A stretch of DNA of 34,031 bases from Vicingaceae bacterium (GTDB lineage: Bacteria > Bacteroidota > Bacteroidia > Flavobacteriales_E > Vicingaceae). The notes beneath the pieces were generated by a model. The model saw only the letters and a program-made list of their open reading frames with translations, did not search any database and was not told the origin of the DNA. The stretch is taken from contig JAQXDJ010000303.1 in NCBI GenBank assembly GCA_029251425.1, positions 1 to 34,031 on the forward strand. Direction: 5' to 3'. Below are positions 11,294 to 18,804 of the stretch, one piece after another (position 1 is the first letter of the stretch; each line of letters opens with the position of its first letter). The translations under genes were made by a program, and so were the position numbers.

Positions 11294-11809
11294 TTATTTT
11301 ACGATACTTGTAAATTTACCATTGGTAATTTTTGTACTATCATTCATGGTAACAGTAAAAGTTCCTGTTACACCATTAATAGTATCTAACGCACTTACAA
11401 CAACTGTTCCGTAAGCTGGGTTTACAACTCCGCCAGCAGCAGAATAATATTGAACATTAGCTGATGACCCTGGTATTGCTAAACCATCAACATTGTACGT
11501 TCCTGCTACCAATCCTTCAATATCCAACTCTATTTGCTCAAATGAATTTCCTGATCCGTTTTCCCAGTAAACCCTTGTTCTACTTCCATTATAAACAAAA
11601 AGTTTAGCTGGACCACTTTTATTAACCGACCCATAATCCATACAAAATCCAGGGTCTCCATTACATGGGTCTGATGTTGGTGCAGGTGTTGGTGCGGGAG
11701 TAGCTGTTGTTGTTGCTACTGGAGCTGGAGTATCTTCTTCTTTTTTACAAGCAGTAAACATTACTATTGCTGCTGAAATCATCAATGTACTTAAAACTAT
11801 TTTTCTCAT
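11294..11809 (-). CDS. Lipoprotein of unknown function with a Pro/Thr/Ala linker
   Basis: MRKIVLSTLMISAAIVMFTACKKEE lipobox, then TPAPVATTTATPAPTPAPTSDP and a beta-rich domain. Confidence 0.8.
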   Translation of the reverse strand: MRKIVLSTLMISAAIVMFTACKKEEDTPAPVATTTATPAPTPAPTSDPCNGDPGFCMDYGSVNKSGPAKLFVYNGSRTRVYWENGSGNSFEQIELDIEGLVAGTYNVDGLAIPGSSANVQYYSAAGGVVNPAYGTVVVSALDTINGVTGTFTVTMNDSTKITNGKFTSIVK

Positions 11810-11862
11810 ATCTTTTAAATTTTAATTTTCTGTAAAGGTCATCCTCTCTTCAACAAATGACA

Positions 11863-11880
11863 ATACGTCATTTGCCTTAT
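11863..11880. promoter_or_regulatory. Copy 1 of the 18-bp dyad element (ATACGTCATTTGCCTTAT)
   Basis: 15/18 identical to the copy at 15232; 53 nt upstream of the lipoprotein ATG. Confidence 0.5.
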
Positions 11881-11925
11881 TTACATAAAACACCCACAAA
11901 AGTTGCAGGTGCTTTATAAATTATT

Positions 11926-13701
11926 TTATTGTTGCATTGGATCAAACTTTCCAAACCAAAGTTGATTCCCCCATCTTTCATTTCCTTTAATTCCACCTTT
12001 ACGTTTTCTAGCACAGTAAACAATTTGTTTGCCTCCATTAATACTAAAGTATGGCAAGTCTTTCCCTTTTCCATCATCCTCTAAATCGATGTACAAGTAA
12101 AAGTCATCTCCACCAAAATTATTAAAATTAGAAACCATTCCAGATTTTACATTAATCTTACCCATCATCCCTTTATAAAGAGGTGTATAAACACAAGTTG
12201 TAGTTCTAGTATTTCCACTTGTTTCAGAAGAGCAATCTACATCAATATCTCCACATAAAAATACATTCCAGAACAACTCATCTTTGTTTGTAGGAGATTC
12301 AAACACTGTAGATTCTGCTGGATAAGATTTTGCTCCTCCAGCCCCTCCTAAAAGACCTGCAGATTTTGCAGTGTTTTGAACACCATAATAACGTTTAAAT
12401 ACTCCTGTTTTATCAAATTGAAACATTAATAAGTCTTTATAAACTCTTCCTTTCACATCTCCAACATTATCATATTTAAAATCTTGACCTGTTATAAAAA
12501 TATCTCCCGAGCTTGTTACACTAACACCATTTAACACAAACTTTTTACCATCAAATTCTCTTAATTTTTTCTGGTCTCCTGGCTTTACTCCTTTTGCATT
12601 AATATCGTCAATAGAAACAGCAGAAACAAATTCAGCTTTTCCTCCACTTAATTTAACCACCTGTAAAAATCCATACTTCATACTTTCTAATGTATTCATT
12701 CTTTGCTCAGCAGTTCCTGCACCTGGAGCAGCATCAGCAGTAATACAAAATGGCGCTTTAGTAAACTTCTTTTCTGGTTTATTAATATTTCCTGCGCCAT
12801 ATAAATACAATTCGTTACCAACATAATAAGCATCAAAAATTGCCCATTCATTACATTTAGTATTAAAATTAAATCGTTCAGTAACGTTTCCTGCGCCATC
12901 TACTTTTACACAAGTTAATTGAGTCGGATCATCTGCTTGTACTTTACCCATTCCTTGCCCTCCATAATTCTGAAAAACCATTATCCATTCATCTTTATCT
13001 TCAAGTTCAGCCGAATATAATAGTGCTTGTGGATGTTCAAAATTTAAAGGTGTCTTTTTTATAATATTCAAATCCTTATCAATGTGCATAATTTGGTATT
13101 CTCTACCTGCATTTTTAGACATCCTTATAATACCCGTATTAATTAAAGCACAAACCAACAATTCTCCTTTGTCCGATAAGTCTCTGTGTGACGTGTAGTA
13201 TAATTTTCTTTTTTTATCCCCACCGTCTGTTCCTAATTGCTTTGGCTTTTCTTTTGCTAACAATGTTTTTGTTGTCTCATAACCGCCTTTCCACCAGTTC
13301 CATTGGTTAACATACTGTGTCTTTTTTAGCACCAACTTCCCCATCATATTTGGACTTGCTGTTACTCCTGTTACTTCCCAATAATCTCCTTTGTAAGTTT
13401 TGTTTTTTGATCTTTTTCTTCTTGACTTTCTCTCTTCTTCAACAGAATTACTAATCAAATTAAAATCATAATCAAATTTGTAGATTTCGTATTTTGCTTT
13501 TCTAGCATTGTCTTTTGTTACAAAAACCATATCAAATTGCTTCTTAGCATCATCAACAACTACATCTCCTAAATAACCTTTTCTTTTAGATTTTCTTGTT
13601 AATTCAACAACTTGTTCTTTTGCTAATTTTTGAGCTGAAACATCATTTAAACTAAATGCGCTTATTAAAAAAGCCCCTACTATAAATTTTACTTTTTTCA
13701 T
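11926..13701 (-). CDS. Secreted protein of unknown function (591 aa)
   Basis: Signal peptide MKKVKFIVGAFLISAFSLNDVSAQ; no family recognised. Confidence 0.8.
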   Translation of the reverse strand: MKKVKFIVGAFLISAFSLNDVSAQKLAKEQVVELTRKSKRKGYLGDVVVDDAKKQFDMVFVTKDNARKAKYEIYKFDYDFNLISNSVEEERKSRRKRSKNKTYKGDYWEVTGVTASPNMMGKLVLKKTQYVNQWNWWKGGYETTKTLLAKEKPKQLGTDGGDKKRKLYYTSHRDLSDKGELLVCALINTGIIRMSKNAGREYQIMHIDKDLNIIKKTPLNFEHPQALLYSAELEDKDEWIMVFQNYGGQGMGKVQADDPTQLTCVKVDGAGNVTERFNFNTKCNEWAIFDAYYVGNELYLYGAGNINKPEKKFTKAPFCITADAAPGAGTAEQRMNTLESMKYGFLQVVKLSGGKAEFVSAVSIDDINAKGVKPGDQKKLREFDGKKFVLNGVSVTSSGDIFITGQDFKYDNVGDVKGRVYKDLLMFQFDKTGVFKRYYGVQNTAKSAGLLGGAGGAKSYPAESTVFESPTNKDELFWNVFLCGDIDVDCSSETSGNTRTTTCVYTPLYKGMMGKINVKSGMVSNFNNFGGDDFYLYIDLEDDGKGKDLPYFSINGGKQIVYCARKRKGGIKGNERWGNQLWFGKFDPMQQ

Positions 13702-13759
13702 CTTTTTTTGATTTTATTAGTTCACGCTACAAAGATTTGAGAATTACTGTTTTCTAACA

Positions 13760-13777
13760 ATAGGGCATTTGTCGTAT
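13760..13777. promoter_or_regulatory. Copy 2 of the 18-bp dyad element (ATAGGGCATTTGTCGTAT)
   Basis: 17/18 identical to the copy at 15232; 58 nt upstream of the 591-aa gene ATG on -, and 43 nt upstream of the 13821 ORF on +. Confidence 0.6.
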
Positions 13778-13792
13778 ATTTTAAATTACGCC

Positions 13793-13800
13793 TATATTTG
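13793..13800 (+). promoter_or_regulatory. -7 box TATATTTG upstream of the 13821 ORF
   Basis: Exact TAnnTTTG match; a TTTG lies 21 nt upstream, inside dyad copy 2. Confidence 0.5.
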
Positions 13801-13820
13801 CCCGCTATTAATTTATTCTC

Positions 13821-14240
13821 ATGCTTAACAAAAAACATAAAATACTAATTGGCTTTATCGCTTTTATCATTGTAGTGCTTATTGCAATACCTATGATCCC
13901 CAAAAACTATATCAATAATAATGGTAAAGAGTTAATAGGAAGAACAATTAACCTTGAAGGATTGAGCTTAAACTATTTTACTGGAGGGTTAAGCTTAGGC
14001 GAATTATTAATTTATGAAGAAAACGGTAAAGACACTTTTTTATATGTTAATGATTTAAGTGTAAATCCAAATGTAATGGCTTGCATTGGTCAAAATTATG
14101 TTATTGAAGAAATTACTATTGATAGATTAAAATGTAACACTGTGCTAACAGATACTATTTTTAACTTTAACAGTATTATTACTCATTTTGATGATACAAC
14201 AACCGTTGAGGAAGAGGATACTTCATCAGTTAATTGCTAA
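13821..14240 (+). pseudogene. N-terminal fragment of an AsmA-like/DUF748-type protein
   Basis: 139 aa: signal anchor, then GKELIGRTINLEGLSLNYFTGGLSLGELLIYEENGKDTFLYVNDLSVN, the start of large DUF748-type proteins. Ends abruptly after the acidic linker. Confidence 0.55.
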
Positions 14241-14529
14241 AGACACTTCAGGAACTACAGTTGTTTTATATAAATATCGCGTAAAAGAAGTAAAAAGAAT
14301 GCCATTGTTAATGAGAAAAAACAAAGGTGTTATTGTAGATGGGAAATGGAAAGATTTAGTTGTTACGTTTTCTAACACAGGTAAGGTAACTTCCTACGAA
14401 ACTTTACCTGAAGAATTGGTTACCGATTATGAAAAAAAATCCATTGACCCGAATAAGTTAATTCAATCTATTACTACTGCTTTAACAGTAATACTCCCTG
14501 CAGTGTTGGTTTACTTTTCAGTAAAGTAA
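14188..14529 (+). CDS. Short ORF in a different frame; C-terminal part of a membrane-anchored protein (possible fragment)
   Basis: 113 aa; credible protein-like sequence from about LIAKDTSGTTVVLYKYRVKEVKRM to a hydrophobic C-terminus. Overlaps the preceding ORF out of frame. Confidence 0.45.
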   Translation: MMIQQPLRKRILHQLIAKDTSGTTVVLYKYRVKEVKRMPLLMRKNKGVIVDGKWKDLVVTFSNTGKVTSYETLPEELVTDYEKKSIDPNKLIQSITTALTVILPAVLVYFSVK

Positions 14530-14532
14530 GCT

Positions 14533-15183
14533 TTATAAAATATTCAGCTTCATTCCTTTTTGTACCGCCTCCATTTTATTGTGTACTTGTAGTTTTTTAT
14601 AAATATTTTCAATGTGCTTACGAACGGTTGAAGGGCTCAAAATTAAATTTTCTGCAATTTGCTGATAATTTAACCCTTTAGATAATTGCTCTAAAACTTC
14701 AGTTTCTCTTTTTGTAAGTGTAATTTCTTCTTGCTGAATTTTGTCTCCTGTCATTCGGGATGGATTACGCAAAATGTTTAATGCTTTTAACGCAACAGAA
14801 GGAGTCATTGCTGCTCCACCGTCTAATACATCTACAATTGATTTATGTAAGTCTTCAGGATTGGTTTCTTTCAATAAATAACCGTCTGCTCCAGCTTGTA
14901 TTGCTCTAAAAATATTGTCATCATCATCAAAAACTGTCAGCATTAAAATTTTAATATGAGGGTATTTATTTTTAACATATTCTGTTGTTTGAATACCATC
15001 CATTTCTGGCATTTGGATGTCCATTAAAATAACATCAACATTATGATCTTGCGTTAATTTTCCAATAAAATCATTTCCATTAGTGCCCCTAAATTTAAAT
15101 TTTAAATCCTCAAAAAAAGAAATTTTCTCTTGTACTGCCTTTGCTAAAAATCCGTTATCCTCTGCTACCGCTATTTTAATCAT
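14533..15183 (-). CDS. NarL/FixJ (LuxR HTH) two-component response regulator
   Basis: MIKIAVAEDNGFL, VILMDIQMPEMDGIQTTEYV, LLKETNPEDL, and LTKRETEVLEQLSKGLNYQQIAENLILSPSTVRKHIENIYKKLQVHNK. Start set to ATG 15183 because the -7 box at 15202-15209 lies inside the longer ORF. Confidence 0.95.
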   Translation of the reverse strand: MIKIAVAEDNGFLAKAVQEKISFFEDLKFKFRGTNGNDFIGKLTQDHNVDVILMDIQMPEMDGIQTTEYVKNKYPHIKILMLTVFDDDDNIFRAIQAGADGYLLKETNPEDLHKSIVDVLDGGAAMTPSVALKALNILRNPSRMTGDKIQQEEITLTKRETEVLEQLSKGLNYQQIAENLILSPSTVRKHIENIYKKLQVHNKMEAVQKGMKLNIL

Positions 15184-15201
15184 AGTTCTAAAATTATTAC
15201 T

Positions 15202-15209
15202 CAAAGATA
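15202..15209 (-). promoter_or_regulatory. -7 box TATCTTTG upstream of the response regulator
   Basis: CAAAGATA on +; exact TAnnTTTG match on -. Confidence 0.6.
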
Positions 15210-15231
15210 TTGACTTCATCTTGTTTTAGCT

Positions 15232-15249
15232 ATACGGCATTTGTCGTAT
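15232..15249. promoter_or_regulatory. Copy 3 of the 18-bp dyad element (ATACGGCATTTGTCGTAT)
   Basis: Imperfect palindrome (7 of 9 symmetric pairs), 48 nt upstream of the regulator ATG. Confidence 0.65.
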
Positions 15250-15259
15250 TTCGTTTAAA

Positions 15260-17263
15260 CTATTTTGGTAGAGTTAACAATATCTCTGTTCCTTTATTGG
15301 GCTCTGAAATCATATCAAAGGTAGCATTTATTACTAATGCCCTATTTCTCATATTTTCTAACCCATCTCCTAATTCTATTTCAGTTAAATTAAATCCTAT
15401 ACCATCATCTTTAATAGAAACCTGTATTTCCTCCTTTTTTTCTGAAATGTTTAACAATACCGAAGTTGCTGCAGAGTATTTCATTGCATTGTTTATTGCC
15501 TCCTGTACAACACGATAAATACTAACTCCTTGAATAGAATTCAATTGAATATCTGATTTTAAATCTGAATTAAATTCAAATTTAGTTTGCTCTTGAGCCA
15601 AGCTAGCATTTTTAATATAATTATACAGTCGCGCTTTTAAGTCTTCAAAAGAAATTTCATCTTTATTTAATGCCCAAATAGTATCTCTTAACTGGGTAAT
15701 GGTGCCTTTAGTAAAAGTAGTTATGTCGATTAGTTTTTGTTTTAATTTAGCATCCAAATCATTAAACACAAAACTCATATTATCAACCGAAGAAATAATA
15801 AAGGTTAACTGCGAACCAATATTATCGTGTAAACTATTAGAAATTTGTAAGCGTTCTTGATGCAATTCGTTTTGAATGTTTATTCGAGCTATTTCATCCT
15901 TTAATAAATTTTCCTCTTGTAGTCTTAATTGCTTTTGCTTCTGAGTACGATATACAAAACCACCTATAAGCACAATAAATGCAATTAATAGTCCCAACCC
16001 TAAAAGTAAATAATCGCGTTGTTTTACTTGTAGTTGCTGAGAGGTTATTTCTAGTTGTTGAGAGGCTATTTCTTTTTCTTTTTTTTCTGTTTCGTACTGT
16101 GTATTTAACAACGCTATTTGTTCATTTGTTGCCTCATTCAACATGGAGTCTTTAATGAGTTTAAATTTTTGATGAGCAAAAAATGCTAATTCATATTGAT
16201 TTAACTTTTCATAAGCTTCAGACAAGCCTAAATAGTTATCTCTAGATGTTTCTAAATGTCCTGTTTGCTTAGAAAATTCTAAACTTTGATTGAAATAATT
16301 TATCGCTTCTTTATATTTTTTAGTTCCAATAAAAACTGCTCCTAAATTATTATACAAGATAGATTGGCCTTCAATATCATTTGATTCTACCCTGATCTTT
16401 AATGCTTTACGAAGGTTTTGTTCTGCTAAAGCATAGTTTTCTAGTTTTTGTTGTGTCACCCCTAAATTTCCATAGCCCATAGCAATAGTACGTAAATCAC
16501 CACTCATTTCCCCAACAGTTATAGCTTGTTGGTAATACAACAAAGCCGAATCTAATTGAAGCATTTCATCATAGATATTCCCTAAGTTTAATAAAATCAA
16601 AGCCTCCTTTTTTAAACTATTTTGCTTGCGGTTAATATTTAAGGCTTTCTGATAATAAAGAATCGCATCTTCAAACTTTTGTTGTTTGTAAAAAATTAGC
16701 CCTAAATTATTTGTGCTTGATGCAATACCTGAGCTATCTTTAATTTGTTCCCTAACCTTTAAAGCCTGTATATAATAAGATGTTGCCTTGTCGTAATCTC
16801 CTTTACTCATAACTACATTTCCTAAGTTGTTTAGAGAAGCGCCCATTCCAACACTATCATTAAGTCGTTTTCGCATTTCTAAAGCCTTTAAAAAATAAAC
16901 CTCAGTACTATCATAATGTCCCATATAAACATGATAAATTCCCAATTGATTATAAGCTGTGCTTAACTGTTTTGGGCTAAAAGAATTTGTAGCAATAATT
17001 TCTCGATATAAGTTAATTGATTTTTCTAGTTCCCCAGTTTGTGCATATTGGTTTCCAAAATGTTTAGCAACAGTTAATACCCCGTCTAAATAGTGTTGTT
17101 TTTTAGCATAACGCATTGCCTCATCGGCATAACTTATAGATGAGTCAGTACTCTCTGTTTGTTTAGCTTGTTCTAGCAAACTAAAAACAATTAAAGAATC
17201 TTCATTTGCACTTACAGAAGTTGTAAAAAGCAAACATAAGGCGATATTTAAGATGCTTTTCAT
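15260..17263 (-). CDS. TPR-repeat sensor histidine kinase (HisKA_3 + HATPase_c)
   Basis: Signal peptide, multiple TPRs, one TM segment, ISNSLHDNIGSQLTFI, N-box QEAINNAMKYS, DDGIGF, GDGLENMRNRA. Confidence 0.93.
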   Translation of the reverse strand: MKSILNIALCLLFTTSVSANEDSLIVFSLLEQAKQTESTDSSISYADEAMRYAKKQHYLDGVLTVAKHFGNQYAQTGELEKSINLYREIIATNSFSPKQLSTAYNQLGIYHVYMGHYDSTEVYFLKALEMRKRLNDSVGMGASLNNLGNVVMSKGDYDKATSYYIQALKVREQIKDSSGIASSTNNLGLIFYKQQKFEDAILYYQKALNINRKQNSLKKEALILLNLGNIYDEMLQLDSALLYYQQAITVGEMSGDLRTIAMGYGNLGVTQQKLENYALAEQNLRKALKIRVESNDIEGQSILYNNLGAVFIGTKKYKEAINYFNQSLEFSKQTGHLETSRDNYLGLSEAYEKLNQYELAFFAHQKFKLIKDSMLNEATNEQIALLNTQYETEKKEKEIASQQLEITSQQLQVKQRDYLLLGLGLLIAFIVLIGGFVYRTQKQKQLRLQEENLLKDEIARINIQNELHQERLQISNSLHDNIGSQLTFIISSVDNMSFVFNDLDAKLKQKLIDITTFTKGTITQLRDTIWALNKDEISFEDLKARLYNYIKNASLAQEQTKFEFNSDLKSDIQLNSIQGVSIYRVVQEAINNAMKYSAATSVLLNISEKKEEIQVSIKDDGIGFNLTEIELGDGLENMRNRALVINATFDMISEPNKGTEILLTLPK

Positions 17264-18690
17264 TTACTTTTATTTAAGGTGTTAATTGTAACCCTTAACT
17301 CTTTTATTGCATTACGTGAGAACTCATTAAGTTCAGACAACTTGTCTTTTAACTCATTGTTGGTCTCTTTCATAAAATAACTCATATTATCTATTGATGA
17401 AATAATAAAAGTTAGTTGAGCTCCAATATTATCATGCAGATCACGAGAAATTCGAACACGTTCTTCATTTAGCTTTTCTTGCATTTTAATTTTAGCTATT
17501 TCATCTTTTAGTCGGTTAGCTTCAATTAATTTTTGTTGCTTAAATTTTATTTGTTTAAGTATAAAAAATCCTAGCACTACAATTAAAATTCCAATCGCAA
17601 TTAAAACATACATAAAATAACTTTGTTGCTTTATTTCGAGATCCTTGTTAGCAATTATTAAATTTTGTTCTAAAATTTGTTTTTCCTTTTTTTGTGTTTC
17701 AAATTGTGTTTCTAATTCAGCTATAGTTTTGTTTGAGCTTTCATTTAGTAACTTGCTGTTTAGTATTACTTGTTGCTTTTGGTAATACAAAGCTTTTGAG
17801 TAGTTATTTGTTTCCAAATAACAAGTTGCGAGTTGCTGACTAATAATTTTTTGTAAATATGCATAGTTGATTTTAGCTGTTATTTTTTCGGCAGCCAAAT
17901 ATTTAATAATTGCTTGTTTATAAAGCTCTTGCTTAAAGTAAAAATCTCCATAATAACTATAGTTTTCTGCCAGACCGTTCAAATCGTTTCTTTTTTTTCT
18001 AATAACAAACGCTCTATCGTAATAAGACATCGCTTCTTTATAATTGCCTTCTATAACATAGGCTCCAGCAATGTTGTTTAAACTATAAGGAATCCCTATA
18101 CTATCTGCTAGTTCTTCCACAATTAACAACCCTTTTTTATAATAAAACAAAGCGCTATCAATATTGCTCTCCATTTCGTGAAGCACTCCAAAATTATTAT
18201 AGGCTGCAGATAAAGCTTTTTGGTCATTAATTTGTTCTAACTGGTTAATGCCTTTTCGCATATATTCAAATGCTCTTGGTAAATCTCTTCTTTTCATCTG
18301 ATAACCAAGGCTAGCATAAACAGATCCGACTTTTAATCTGTTTTTTAACCCTTCATATAGGTTAATTGCGTTTAAACTTGTCTGAACCGCTAAATCATAA
18401 TCTCCTTTATAATAATAAGCTATTGATTGTTTTTCATAAAGTTGAGCGGTTAAGTTTTCACTTTTCTGGTTCTTTGCGATGTCTATTCCATAACCATAAA
18501 TATCAATAGCGGTAGAAGTATTACTATTCATTTTATCAAAAGGAATAGCGATAATTAACGCTATCTTTTTATCTTCTGAAACCCCTGAAATAACTGTTTT
18601 TAAACTATCGAAATAACTGACCTGAGCATTTACATTAAAGCAAAATACAACAAGGAATAAAACAAATGTATATCGAAAAGTAATTTGCAT
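17260..18690 (-). CDS. TPR-repeat sensor kinase-like protein with a DHp (HisKA_3) domain but no ATPase domain
   Basis: TPRs, one TM segment, RVRISRDLHDNIGAQLTFIISSIDNMSYFM...ELRVTINTLNKSK*. Stop overlaps the next ATG (ATGA). Start set to MQITFRYT at 18690. Confidence 0.88.
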   Translation of the reverse strand: MQITFRYTFVLFLVVFCFNVNAQVSYFDSLKTVISGVSEDKKIALIIAIPFDKMNSNTSTAIDIYGYGIDIAKNQKSENLTAQLYEKQSIAYYYKGDYDLAVQTSLNAINLYEGLKNRLKVGSVYASLGYQMKRRDLPRAFEYMRKGINQLEQINDQKALSAAYNNFGVLHEMESNIDSALFYYKKGLLIVEELADSIGIPYSLNNIAGAYVIEGNYKEAMSYYDRAFVIRKKRNDLNGLAENYSYYGDFYFKQELYKQAIIKYLAAEKITAKINYAYLQKIISQQLATCYLETNNYSKALYYQKQQVILNSKLLNESSNKTIAELETQFETQKKEKQILEQNLIIANKDLEIKQQSYFMYVLIAIGILIVVLGFFILKQIKFKQQKLIEANRLKDEIAKIKMQEKLNEERVRISRDLHDNIGAQLTFIISSIDNMSYFMKETNNELKDKLSELNEFSRNAIKELRVTINTLNKSK

Positions 18691-18804
18691 AAAAACCCTG
18701 ATTAAATTAATCAAGGCTAAATATAATAAGTTTTTTACTTTGACAAACTGAAAAATTAAACGTTGTTTTTTCAAGACAAAATGTTGGCTTTTCCAGCTTA
18801 ACAA

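What the first reader, a model, noticed from the sequence alone, without database searches (positions are those of the whole stretch)
11863..15249. Three copies of an 18-bp dyad at fixed spacing from -7 boxes: candidate regulon of the adjacent LuxR-type response regulator
Seen directly on +: ATACGTCATTTGCCTTAT (11863-11880), ATAGGGCATTTGTCGTAT (13760-13777) and ATACGGCATTTGTCGTAT (15232-15249). All three are intergenic, 53, 58 and 48 nt upstream of minus-strand starts: the lipoprotein (11809), the 591-aa secreted protein (13701) and the response regulator (15183). In each case the element edge is exactly 22 nt from a -7-like octamer: GACCTTTA, AATCTTTG and TATCTTTG. The element is an imperfect palindrome of a size typical for NarL/LuxR-type HTH dimers. 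At this spacing it would centre near -42, a class II activator position. Inference: the neighbouring two-component system autoregulates and controls two secreted proteins of unknown function. The -7 boxes weaken as targets get further from the regulator, which would fit activator dependence.
Basis: partly seen in the sequence, partly recalled or inferred. Interest (0 to 1): 0.75.

Follow-up and report, generated by a model that had tools for sequence, protein, structure and literature searches.

The report
A response regulator's conserved promoter code
Three near-identical switch sequences in this bacterial genome are real binding-site candidates for the neighbouring signal-response protein, always sitting the same distance from the promoter, and the same arrangement recurs across related bacteria in front of the regulator itself and of genes for secreted proteins.

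Summary
The three 18-bp dyads are at the stated coordinates, each exactly 22 nt upstream of a -7 octamer. Exact composite sites (dyad-N22-NAnnTTTG) occur 34 times in 46 genomes of the order (reversed control: 0), in all 14 genomes carrying the close response regulator (RR; one fragment) and in none of the 32 others. Among 47 dyads chosen without regard to the -7 box, the box sits at offset 22 in 20, against 0.3 expected per offset. The dyad precedes the RR itself across relatives and several Flavobacteriaceae; where kinase and RR form an operon it can precede the kinase. Other targets are mostly signal-peptide proteins: the 591-aa beta-rich family, DUF6252/Riean_0653-like lipoproteins, beta-propellers, MORN, OmpA/PD40 and FGE-domain proteins. 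This genome has four sites; the fourth precedes a lipoprotein on another contig. Best reading: an autoregulated NarL/LuxR-type regulon with class II-like activation near -42. The claim that -7 boxes weaken with distance is not supported: RR promoters pair a consensus -7 with no -33 TTG; targets more often have the TTG and a degenerate -7. Binding and activation are untested. No description was found in the open-access library.

The parts
15232..15249 (-). Operator of the response-regulator promoter (ATACGACAAATGCCGTAT on the - strand)
   Evidence: same element and N22 upstream of RR orthologs
15202..15209 (-). -7 octamer TATCTTTG of the RR promoter, 22 nt from the operator; no TTG at -33
14533..15183 (-). 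NarL/LuxR-type response regulator P0001 (216 aa; receiver + GerE HTH; D9, D55, T83, K105 invariant in 17 orthologs)
15260..17263 (-). Probable cognate TPR sensor histidine kinase P0002 (667 aa; TPR, HisKA_3, HATPase_c), immediately upstream of the RR promoter
13760..13777 (-). Operator of the 591-aa gene (ATACGACAAATGCCCTAT)
   Evidence: 7 further promoters of the same family carry operator-N22-box
13758..13760 (-). TTG at the -33 position, formed by the last operator base plus TG
13730..13737 (-). -7 octamer AATCTTTG of the 591-aa gene
11926..13701 (-). 591-aa secreted protein P0003, no Pfam/NCBIfam family; all-beta, perhaps beta-propeller (low-confidence model)
11863..11880 (-). Operator of the lipoprotein gene (ATAAGGCAAATGACGTAT)
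11861..11863 (-). TTG at the -33 position of the lipoprotein promoter
11833..11840 (-). -7-like octamer GACCTTTA of the lipoprotein gene (weak)
11294..11809 (-). Lipoprotein P0004 (171 aa), DUF6252 / Riean_0653-like, below both curated cut-offs
   Evidence: Flavobacteriaceae counterparts under the same operator
17260..18804 (-). TPR + HisKA_3 protein without an ATPase domain next to the kinase; possible partner, role unknown

Best explanation
The 18-bp dyad (consensus about ATAVGNCAWWTGNCBTAT) is most likely the operator of the adjacent NarL/LuxR-type response regulator P0001, the output of a TPR-sensor two-component system. Shown here: the site, its fixed 22-nt distance to a Bacteroidota -7 box, its restriction within the order to genomes that carry the regulator, its conservation at the regulator's own promoter, and its location in front of genes mostly coding for exported proteins. 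Inferred: on an envelope or surface signal the kinase phosphorylates P0001 at D55; a P0001 dimer binds the dyad, centred near -42 (TSS not measured), where it adjoins or replaces the -33 element and contacts the housekeeping RNA polymerase (class II-like activation). It raises its own gene (positive feedback; that promoter has a consensus -7 but no -33 TTG) and a small set of envelope and secreted proteins (in this genome the 591-aa protein, the lipoprotein and a second lipoprotein on contig C73).
For: Co-occurrence: exact composite sites in 14 of 46 genomes of the order, reversed control 0; these are the 13 genomes with an RR above 380 bits plus G007, whose RR is cut by a contig end; none in the other 32. 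The RR is patchy inside genera g1 and g4 and the sites follow it. Spacing: 20 of 47 unselected dyads have NAnnTTTG at offset 22, background 0.31 per offset; of 115 composite sites allowed 21-23, 97 are at 22. Autoregulation: the dyad precedes RR orthologs in the family, and in Polaribacter, Lutibacter, Psychroserpens, Gilvibacter and Leeuwenhoekiella; in Flavobacterium solisilvae (L250), F. lacus (L251) and a MAG (L252) it precedes a kinase gene of the cluster. In G003 the RR is a separate unit from its kinases and still has the site. Only the RR carries this HTH type in G000. Targets: 82 of 102 flagged as signal peptide or lipobox by a crude rule. Precedent: the NarL-family regulator DevR has its promoter-proximal site overlapping the -35 element (PMC3029386).
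Against: No binding, TSS or expression data. A site overlapping -33 can also repress. The genomes are related, so counts are not independent. Flavobacteriaceae sites were found with a pattern that already contained N22. Some RR orthologs (G028, several Flavobacteriaceae) have no recognisable dyad directly upstream of the RR. The signal-peptide call is crude and also flags a few cytoplasmic proteins.
Confidence: 0.82

Rival explanations
1. The RR binds the dyad but represses: it occupies the -33 region, blocks RNA polymerase at its own and target promoters, and phosphorylation releases or adds repression.
For: The dyad ends at the -33 position and in 41 of 74 targets shares a base with TTG. In the window the 13760 dyad also covers a TTTG that is 21 nt from TATATTTG of the divergent + strand gene, so it could repress that one (sequence).
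Against: A rigid 22-nt distance over about a hundred promoters and many genera is expected for contact with polymerase; a repressor tolerates shifts. RR promoters lack the -33 TTG (15 of 17), as activator-dependent promoters often do.
Confidence: 0.12
2. Another DNA-binding protein reads the dyad: for example the stand-alone 70-90-aa GerE HTH proteins encoded next to the RR in several relatives.
For: In several relatives (for example G012, G016, G029, G036, G040, G044) such an ORF lies under its own copy of the operator, with a recognition helix like that of the RR.
Against: No such protein is found in G000, G003, G006 or G030, where the only HTH of this type is the RR itself, yet the sites are there.
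Confidence: 0.05
3. The 18-mer is the upstream element of an alternative sigma factor rather than an operator.
For: Fixed spacing to the -7 box, as for a promoter element.
Against: Two-fold symmetry over 18 bp; the -7 box is the housekeeping TAnnTTTG; presence follows the RR.
Confidence: 0.02
4. Chance or repeat-borne similarity without function.
For: The bare 18-mer with 2 mismatches is only mildly enriched in the genome (39 vs 23).
Against: Reversed-pattern controls are zero or far lower, and the element is conserved across families.
Confidence: 0.01

Closest known systems
FimS/FimR of Porphyromonas gingivalis (TPR-sensor kinase and its response regulator; PMC11053733, PMC1974823)
   Same: Bacteroidota; periplasmic TPR sensor; the regulator activates genes for surface proteins and binds a target promoter directly (mfa1). 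P0002's best NCBIfam model is FimS.
   Different: P0002 scores 139 bits against a FimS cut-off of 600; no fimbrial subunit was identified among the targets annotated; the passages read give no FimR consensus site, so operators cannot be compared.
NarL/FixJ-LuxR family response regulators (NarL, DesR, VraR/LiaR, DevR)
   Same: Receiver plus GerE domain; closest solved structures are VraR-annotated chains, DesR, ChrA and NarL; DevR also uses a site overlapping the -35 element (PMC3029386).
   Different: Acts on Bacteroidota -33/-7 promoters with a near-invariant 22-nt spacer; operator letters not matched to any described site in the papers searched.
Housekeeping (sigma-ABfr type) Bacteroidota promoter, TAnnTTTG at -7 and TTTG near -33 (PMC7366714)
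   Same: -7 octamer, and in many targets a TTG 20 nt upstream of it.
   Different: Here the -33 element adjoins and shares a base with the operator (targets) or is absent (RR promoter).

Membership tests
NarL/FixJ-LuxR response regulator | Receiver domain with phospho-acceptor Asp and GerE-type HTH | tested here: met
   PF00072 4.6e-23 and PF00196 2.8e-18; D9, D55, T83, K105 invariant
NarL/FixJ-LuxR response regulator | Sequence-specific binding to the proposed operator | not testable with these tools
   Only indirect: co-occurrence and autoregulatory position
FimS/FimR two-component system | Kinase reaches the curated FimS score | tested here: not met
   139.4 bits vs cut-off 600
FimS/FimR two-component system | TPR sensor joined to HisKA_3 and HATPase_c | tested here: met
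   TPR_12, HisKA_3, HATPase_c in P0002
FimS/FimR two-component system | Controls fimbrial genes | tested here: inconclusive
   No fimbrial subunit among the targets annotated; only representatives of the clusters were scanned
Class II-activated Bacteroidota housekeeping promoter | Activator site at fixed position adjoining -33 | tested here: met
   Offset 22 peak; 97 of 115 composite sites
Class II-activated Bacteroidota housekeeping promoter | TSS just downstream of the -7 box and activator dependence | not testable with these tools
   No transcript data for these genomes
DUF6252 / Riean_0653 lipoprotein (P0004) | Curated family cut-off | tested here: not met
   20.6 vs 27.2 and 33.3 vs 57 bits; the three Flavobacteriaceae counterparts scanned do pass DUF6252

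The most novel reading that the evidence does not exclude
The dyad-N22-TAnnTTTG geometry is a general rule for NarL/LuxR-type response regulators of Bacteroidota, each with its own half-site letters, so that many orphan regulons of the phylum could be read from sequence. A second class, ATACCACAAATGTGGTAT-N22-TAnnTTTG, lies beside a different 210-aa NarL-type regulator (L282, L284), and sites of that class occur in two further genomes of another family (G068, G193).
Probability: 0.45. Interest if true: 0.75.

Novelty: new member of a known kind. Interest (0 to 1): 0.6.

Why it matters
As far as I know, few response-regulator operators are defined in Bacteroidota. This gives a sharp operator with a fixed promoter geometry, an autoregulatory site and a recurring set of exported proteins of unknown function, in genera with cultured strains (Flavobacterium, Polaribacter). 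It ties orphan families (DUF6252/Riean_0653-like lipoproteins, the 591-aa protein) to one signalling system and can be tested with one knockout and one DAP-seq experiment.

Tried and rejected
The bare 18-mer scan of the own genome is noisy and was replaced by the composite pattern. Searches for the motif letters and for a described TPR-kinase/LuxR regulon in Bacteroidota found nothing relevant in the open-access library. P0003 has no Pfam, NCBIfam or solved-structure sequence match; its AlphaFold2 model is weak (pLDDT 61) and the Foldseek hits, largely beta-propeller proteins, have TM-scores of at most 0.34, so 'beta-propeller' stays tentative. Stand-alone HTH binder, alternative sigma and chance were considered and rejected (see rivals).

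Full report
Observation. Read on the minus strand they are ATAAGGCAAATGACGTAT, ATACGACAAATGCCCTAT and ATACGACAAATGCCGTAT, each followed after exactly 22 nt by GACCTTTA, AATCTTTG and TATCTTTG. Within the window, 3 matches at up to 3 mismatches compare with 0.01 expected.

Own genome. The window is contig C305 of a 2.54-Mb, 463-contig assembly, about 80% complete. The bare 18-mer at 2 mismatches is noisy (39 hits, reversed control 23). With the spacer and -7 box it is clean: the three window sites plus one at C73:2493 (ATACGCCATATGCCGTAT-N22-TATTTTTG, 56 nt before a 251-aa lipoprotein with a Thr/Pro-rich linker like that of P0004); three further hits at 3 mismatches compare with two in the control.

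Relatives. P0001 has orthologs at 71-88% identity in 12 genomes of the family. In 100 relatives the palindrome ATACGRCANNTGYCGTAT (<=1 mismatch) turns up mainly in those genomes. The composite pattern with 1 mismatch gives 61 hits in 13 RR-carrying genomes (reversed control 3) and 6 in 13 genomes without a close RR ortholog, three of which are a sibling operator. With no mismatch it gives 34 hits in 46 genomes of the order, control 0. The 14 positive genomes are the 13 with a strong RR hit and G007, where the RR runs off a contig. None of the 32 others is positive; these include G009 and G028, whose RRs are only about half identical. By simple counting 14/14 against 0/32 has a probability near 4e-12 (my arithmetic), but the genomes are related; the more telling fact is that presence varies within genera g1 and g4 and sites follow the RR in both.

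Spacing. To avoid circularity, 47 distinct dyads were taken without looking at the -7 box: NAnnTTTG begins at offset 22 in 20 of them, against 0.31 per offset elsewhere. Of 115 composite sites allowed spacings of 21-23, 97 have 22. Only 3 of 41 family dyads lie inside ORFs of 100 aa or more, although 89% of those loci is ORF.

Autoregulation. The element precedes the RR in G003, G006, G007, G012, G016, G017, G029, G030, G036, G039, G040, G042, G044, G071 and G090 (spacing 23 in G017, and a weaker box in G090). In named genomes it stands directly upstream of the RR in Polaribacter aquimarinus, Lutibacter citreus, Psychroserpens mesophilus, Gilvibacter sediminis, Leeuwenhoekiella polynyae and a Bacteroidia MAG (L154) (in Gilvibacter no good box stands at N22, and in Psychroserpens and L154 the spacing is 21). 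In Flavobacterium solisilvae, F. lacus and a MAG (L252) it stands in front of a kinase gene of the cluster instead. In G003 the kinases and the RR are in separate units and the RR still has the site.

Targets. Clusters of downstream genes: RR and stand-alone GerE proteins (25), the 591-aa family (8), DUF6252/Riean_0653-like lipoproteins (6 in Flavobacteriaceae; the window lipoprotein and an L279 counterpart form a separate pair, and P0004 scores weakly with the same models), MORN proteins, a PQQ-type beta-propeller family, OmpA/PD40 proteins, FGE-domain proteins and others. A crude signal test flags 82 of 102 as exported or lipoprotein. The 591-aa family is all-beta; the model is weak but its structure hits are largely beta-propeller proteins.

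Mechanism. The dyad centre lies 35 nt upstream of the centre of the -7 octamer, hence near -42 if the octamer is centred at -7. Published housekeeping promoters of the phylum have TAnnTTTG at -7 and TTTG near -33 (PMC7366714). In targets the last operator base often starts a TTG at the -33 position (41 of 74), whereas RR promoters rarely have it (2 of 17) but always have TA in the -7 box (17 of 17 against 30 of 74 in targets). The 17 RR promoters are related and the -7 box entered the selection score, so these counts are indicative. A rigid spacing adjoining -33 is what a class II activator needs; DevR, another NarL-family regulator, uses a site overlapping -35 (PMC3029386). Activation is nevertheless an inference.

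Who binds. The only HTH of this type in G000, G003, G006 and G030 is the RR itself; relatives that also encode a stand-alone GerE protein under the same operator may add a second layer (amplifier or competitor; inference).

Place among known systems. The RR is a normal NarL/LuxR-type regulator. The kinase resembles FimS in domain order but fails its curated cut-off, so this works like FimS/FimR and is not filed as that system. No paper found in the open-access library held the motif or this regulon; subscription literature was not searched.

Noticed in passing
L282:2601-3310, L284:3440-4147; G068:C258:597, G193:C12:3883: A sibling operator ATACCACAAATGTGGTAT, also N22 from TAnnTTTG, lies between a different 210-aa NarL-type regulator and a ~400-aa exported, possibly porin-like protein; sites of this class recur in two genomes of another family.
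   Followed up: partly
L280:3000-3214, L281:564-800, L283:2957-3166: The same sibling operator between a small globin-like gene and a UbiD-like gene would drive a ~50-aa Cys-rich ORF (KKKKDNCCRKFEKKGKSCCKSCPLNWG); its spacer holds TTAGAATGATTCTAA, a 7-1-7 dyad resembling Fur/PerR boxes (resemblance from memory).
   Followed up: partly
window 17260-18804 (-); L060:2655-4079; L061:4584-6008: A TPR + HisKA_3 protein without ATPase domain, ending at about the same point in three genomes, precedes a complete kinase: a conserved partner that may lack kinase activity of its own.
   Followed up: partly
L062:8635-11742 (G012): The kinase next to the same RR and operator has a Reg_prop/Y_Y_Y propeller sensor instead of TPR repeats: sensor swap with the output kept.
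   Followed up: partly
window 13760-13820 (+): The 13760 operator also covers a TTTG that is 21 nt from TATATTTG on the + strand, so the same site could repress the divergent gene at 13821 (sequence).
   Followed up: no
window 13821-14529 (+): Two overlapping + strand ORFs in different frames (139 and 113 aa) look like a truncated AsmA-like N-terminus joined to an unrelated tail (impression from sequence, not searched).
   Followed up: no
L062:7557-7826, L063:8552 on, L064:4277, L067:8728, L068:9071, L069:9971, L097:1796: Stand-alone 70-90-aa GerE HTH proteins, mostly next to the RR, under their own copy of the operator in several relatives but not found in the window's genome.
   Followed up: partly
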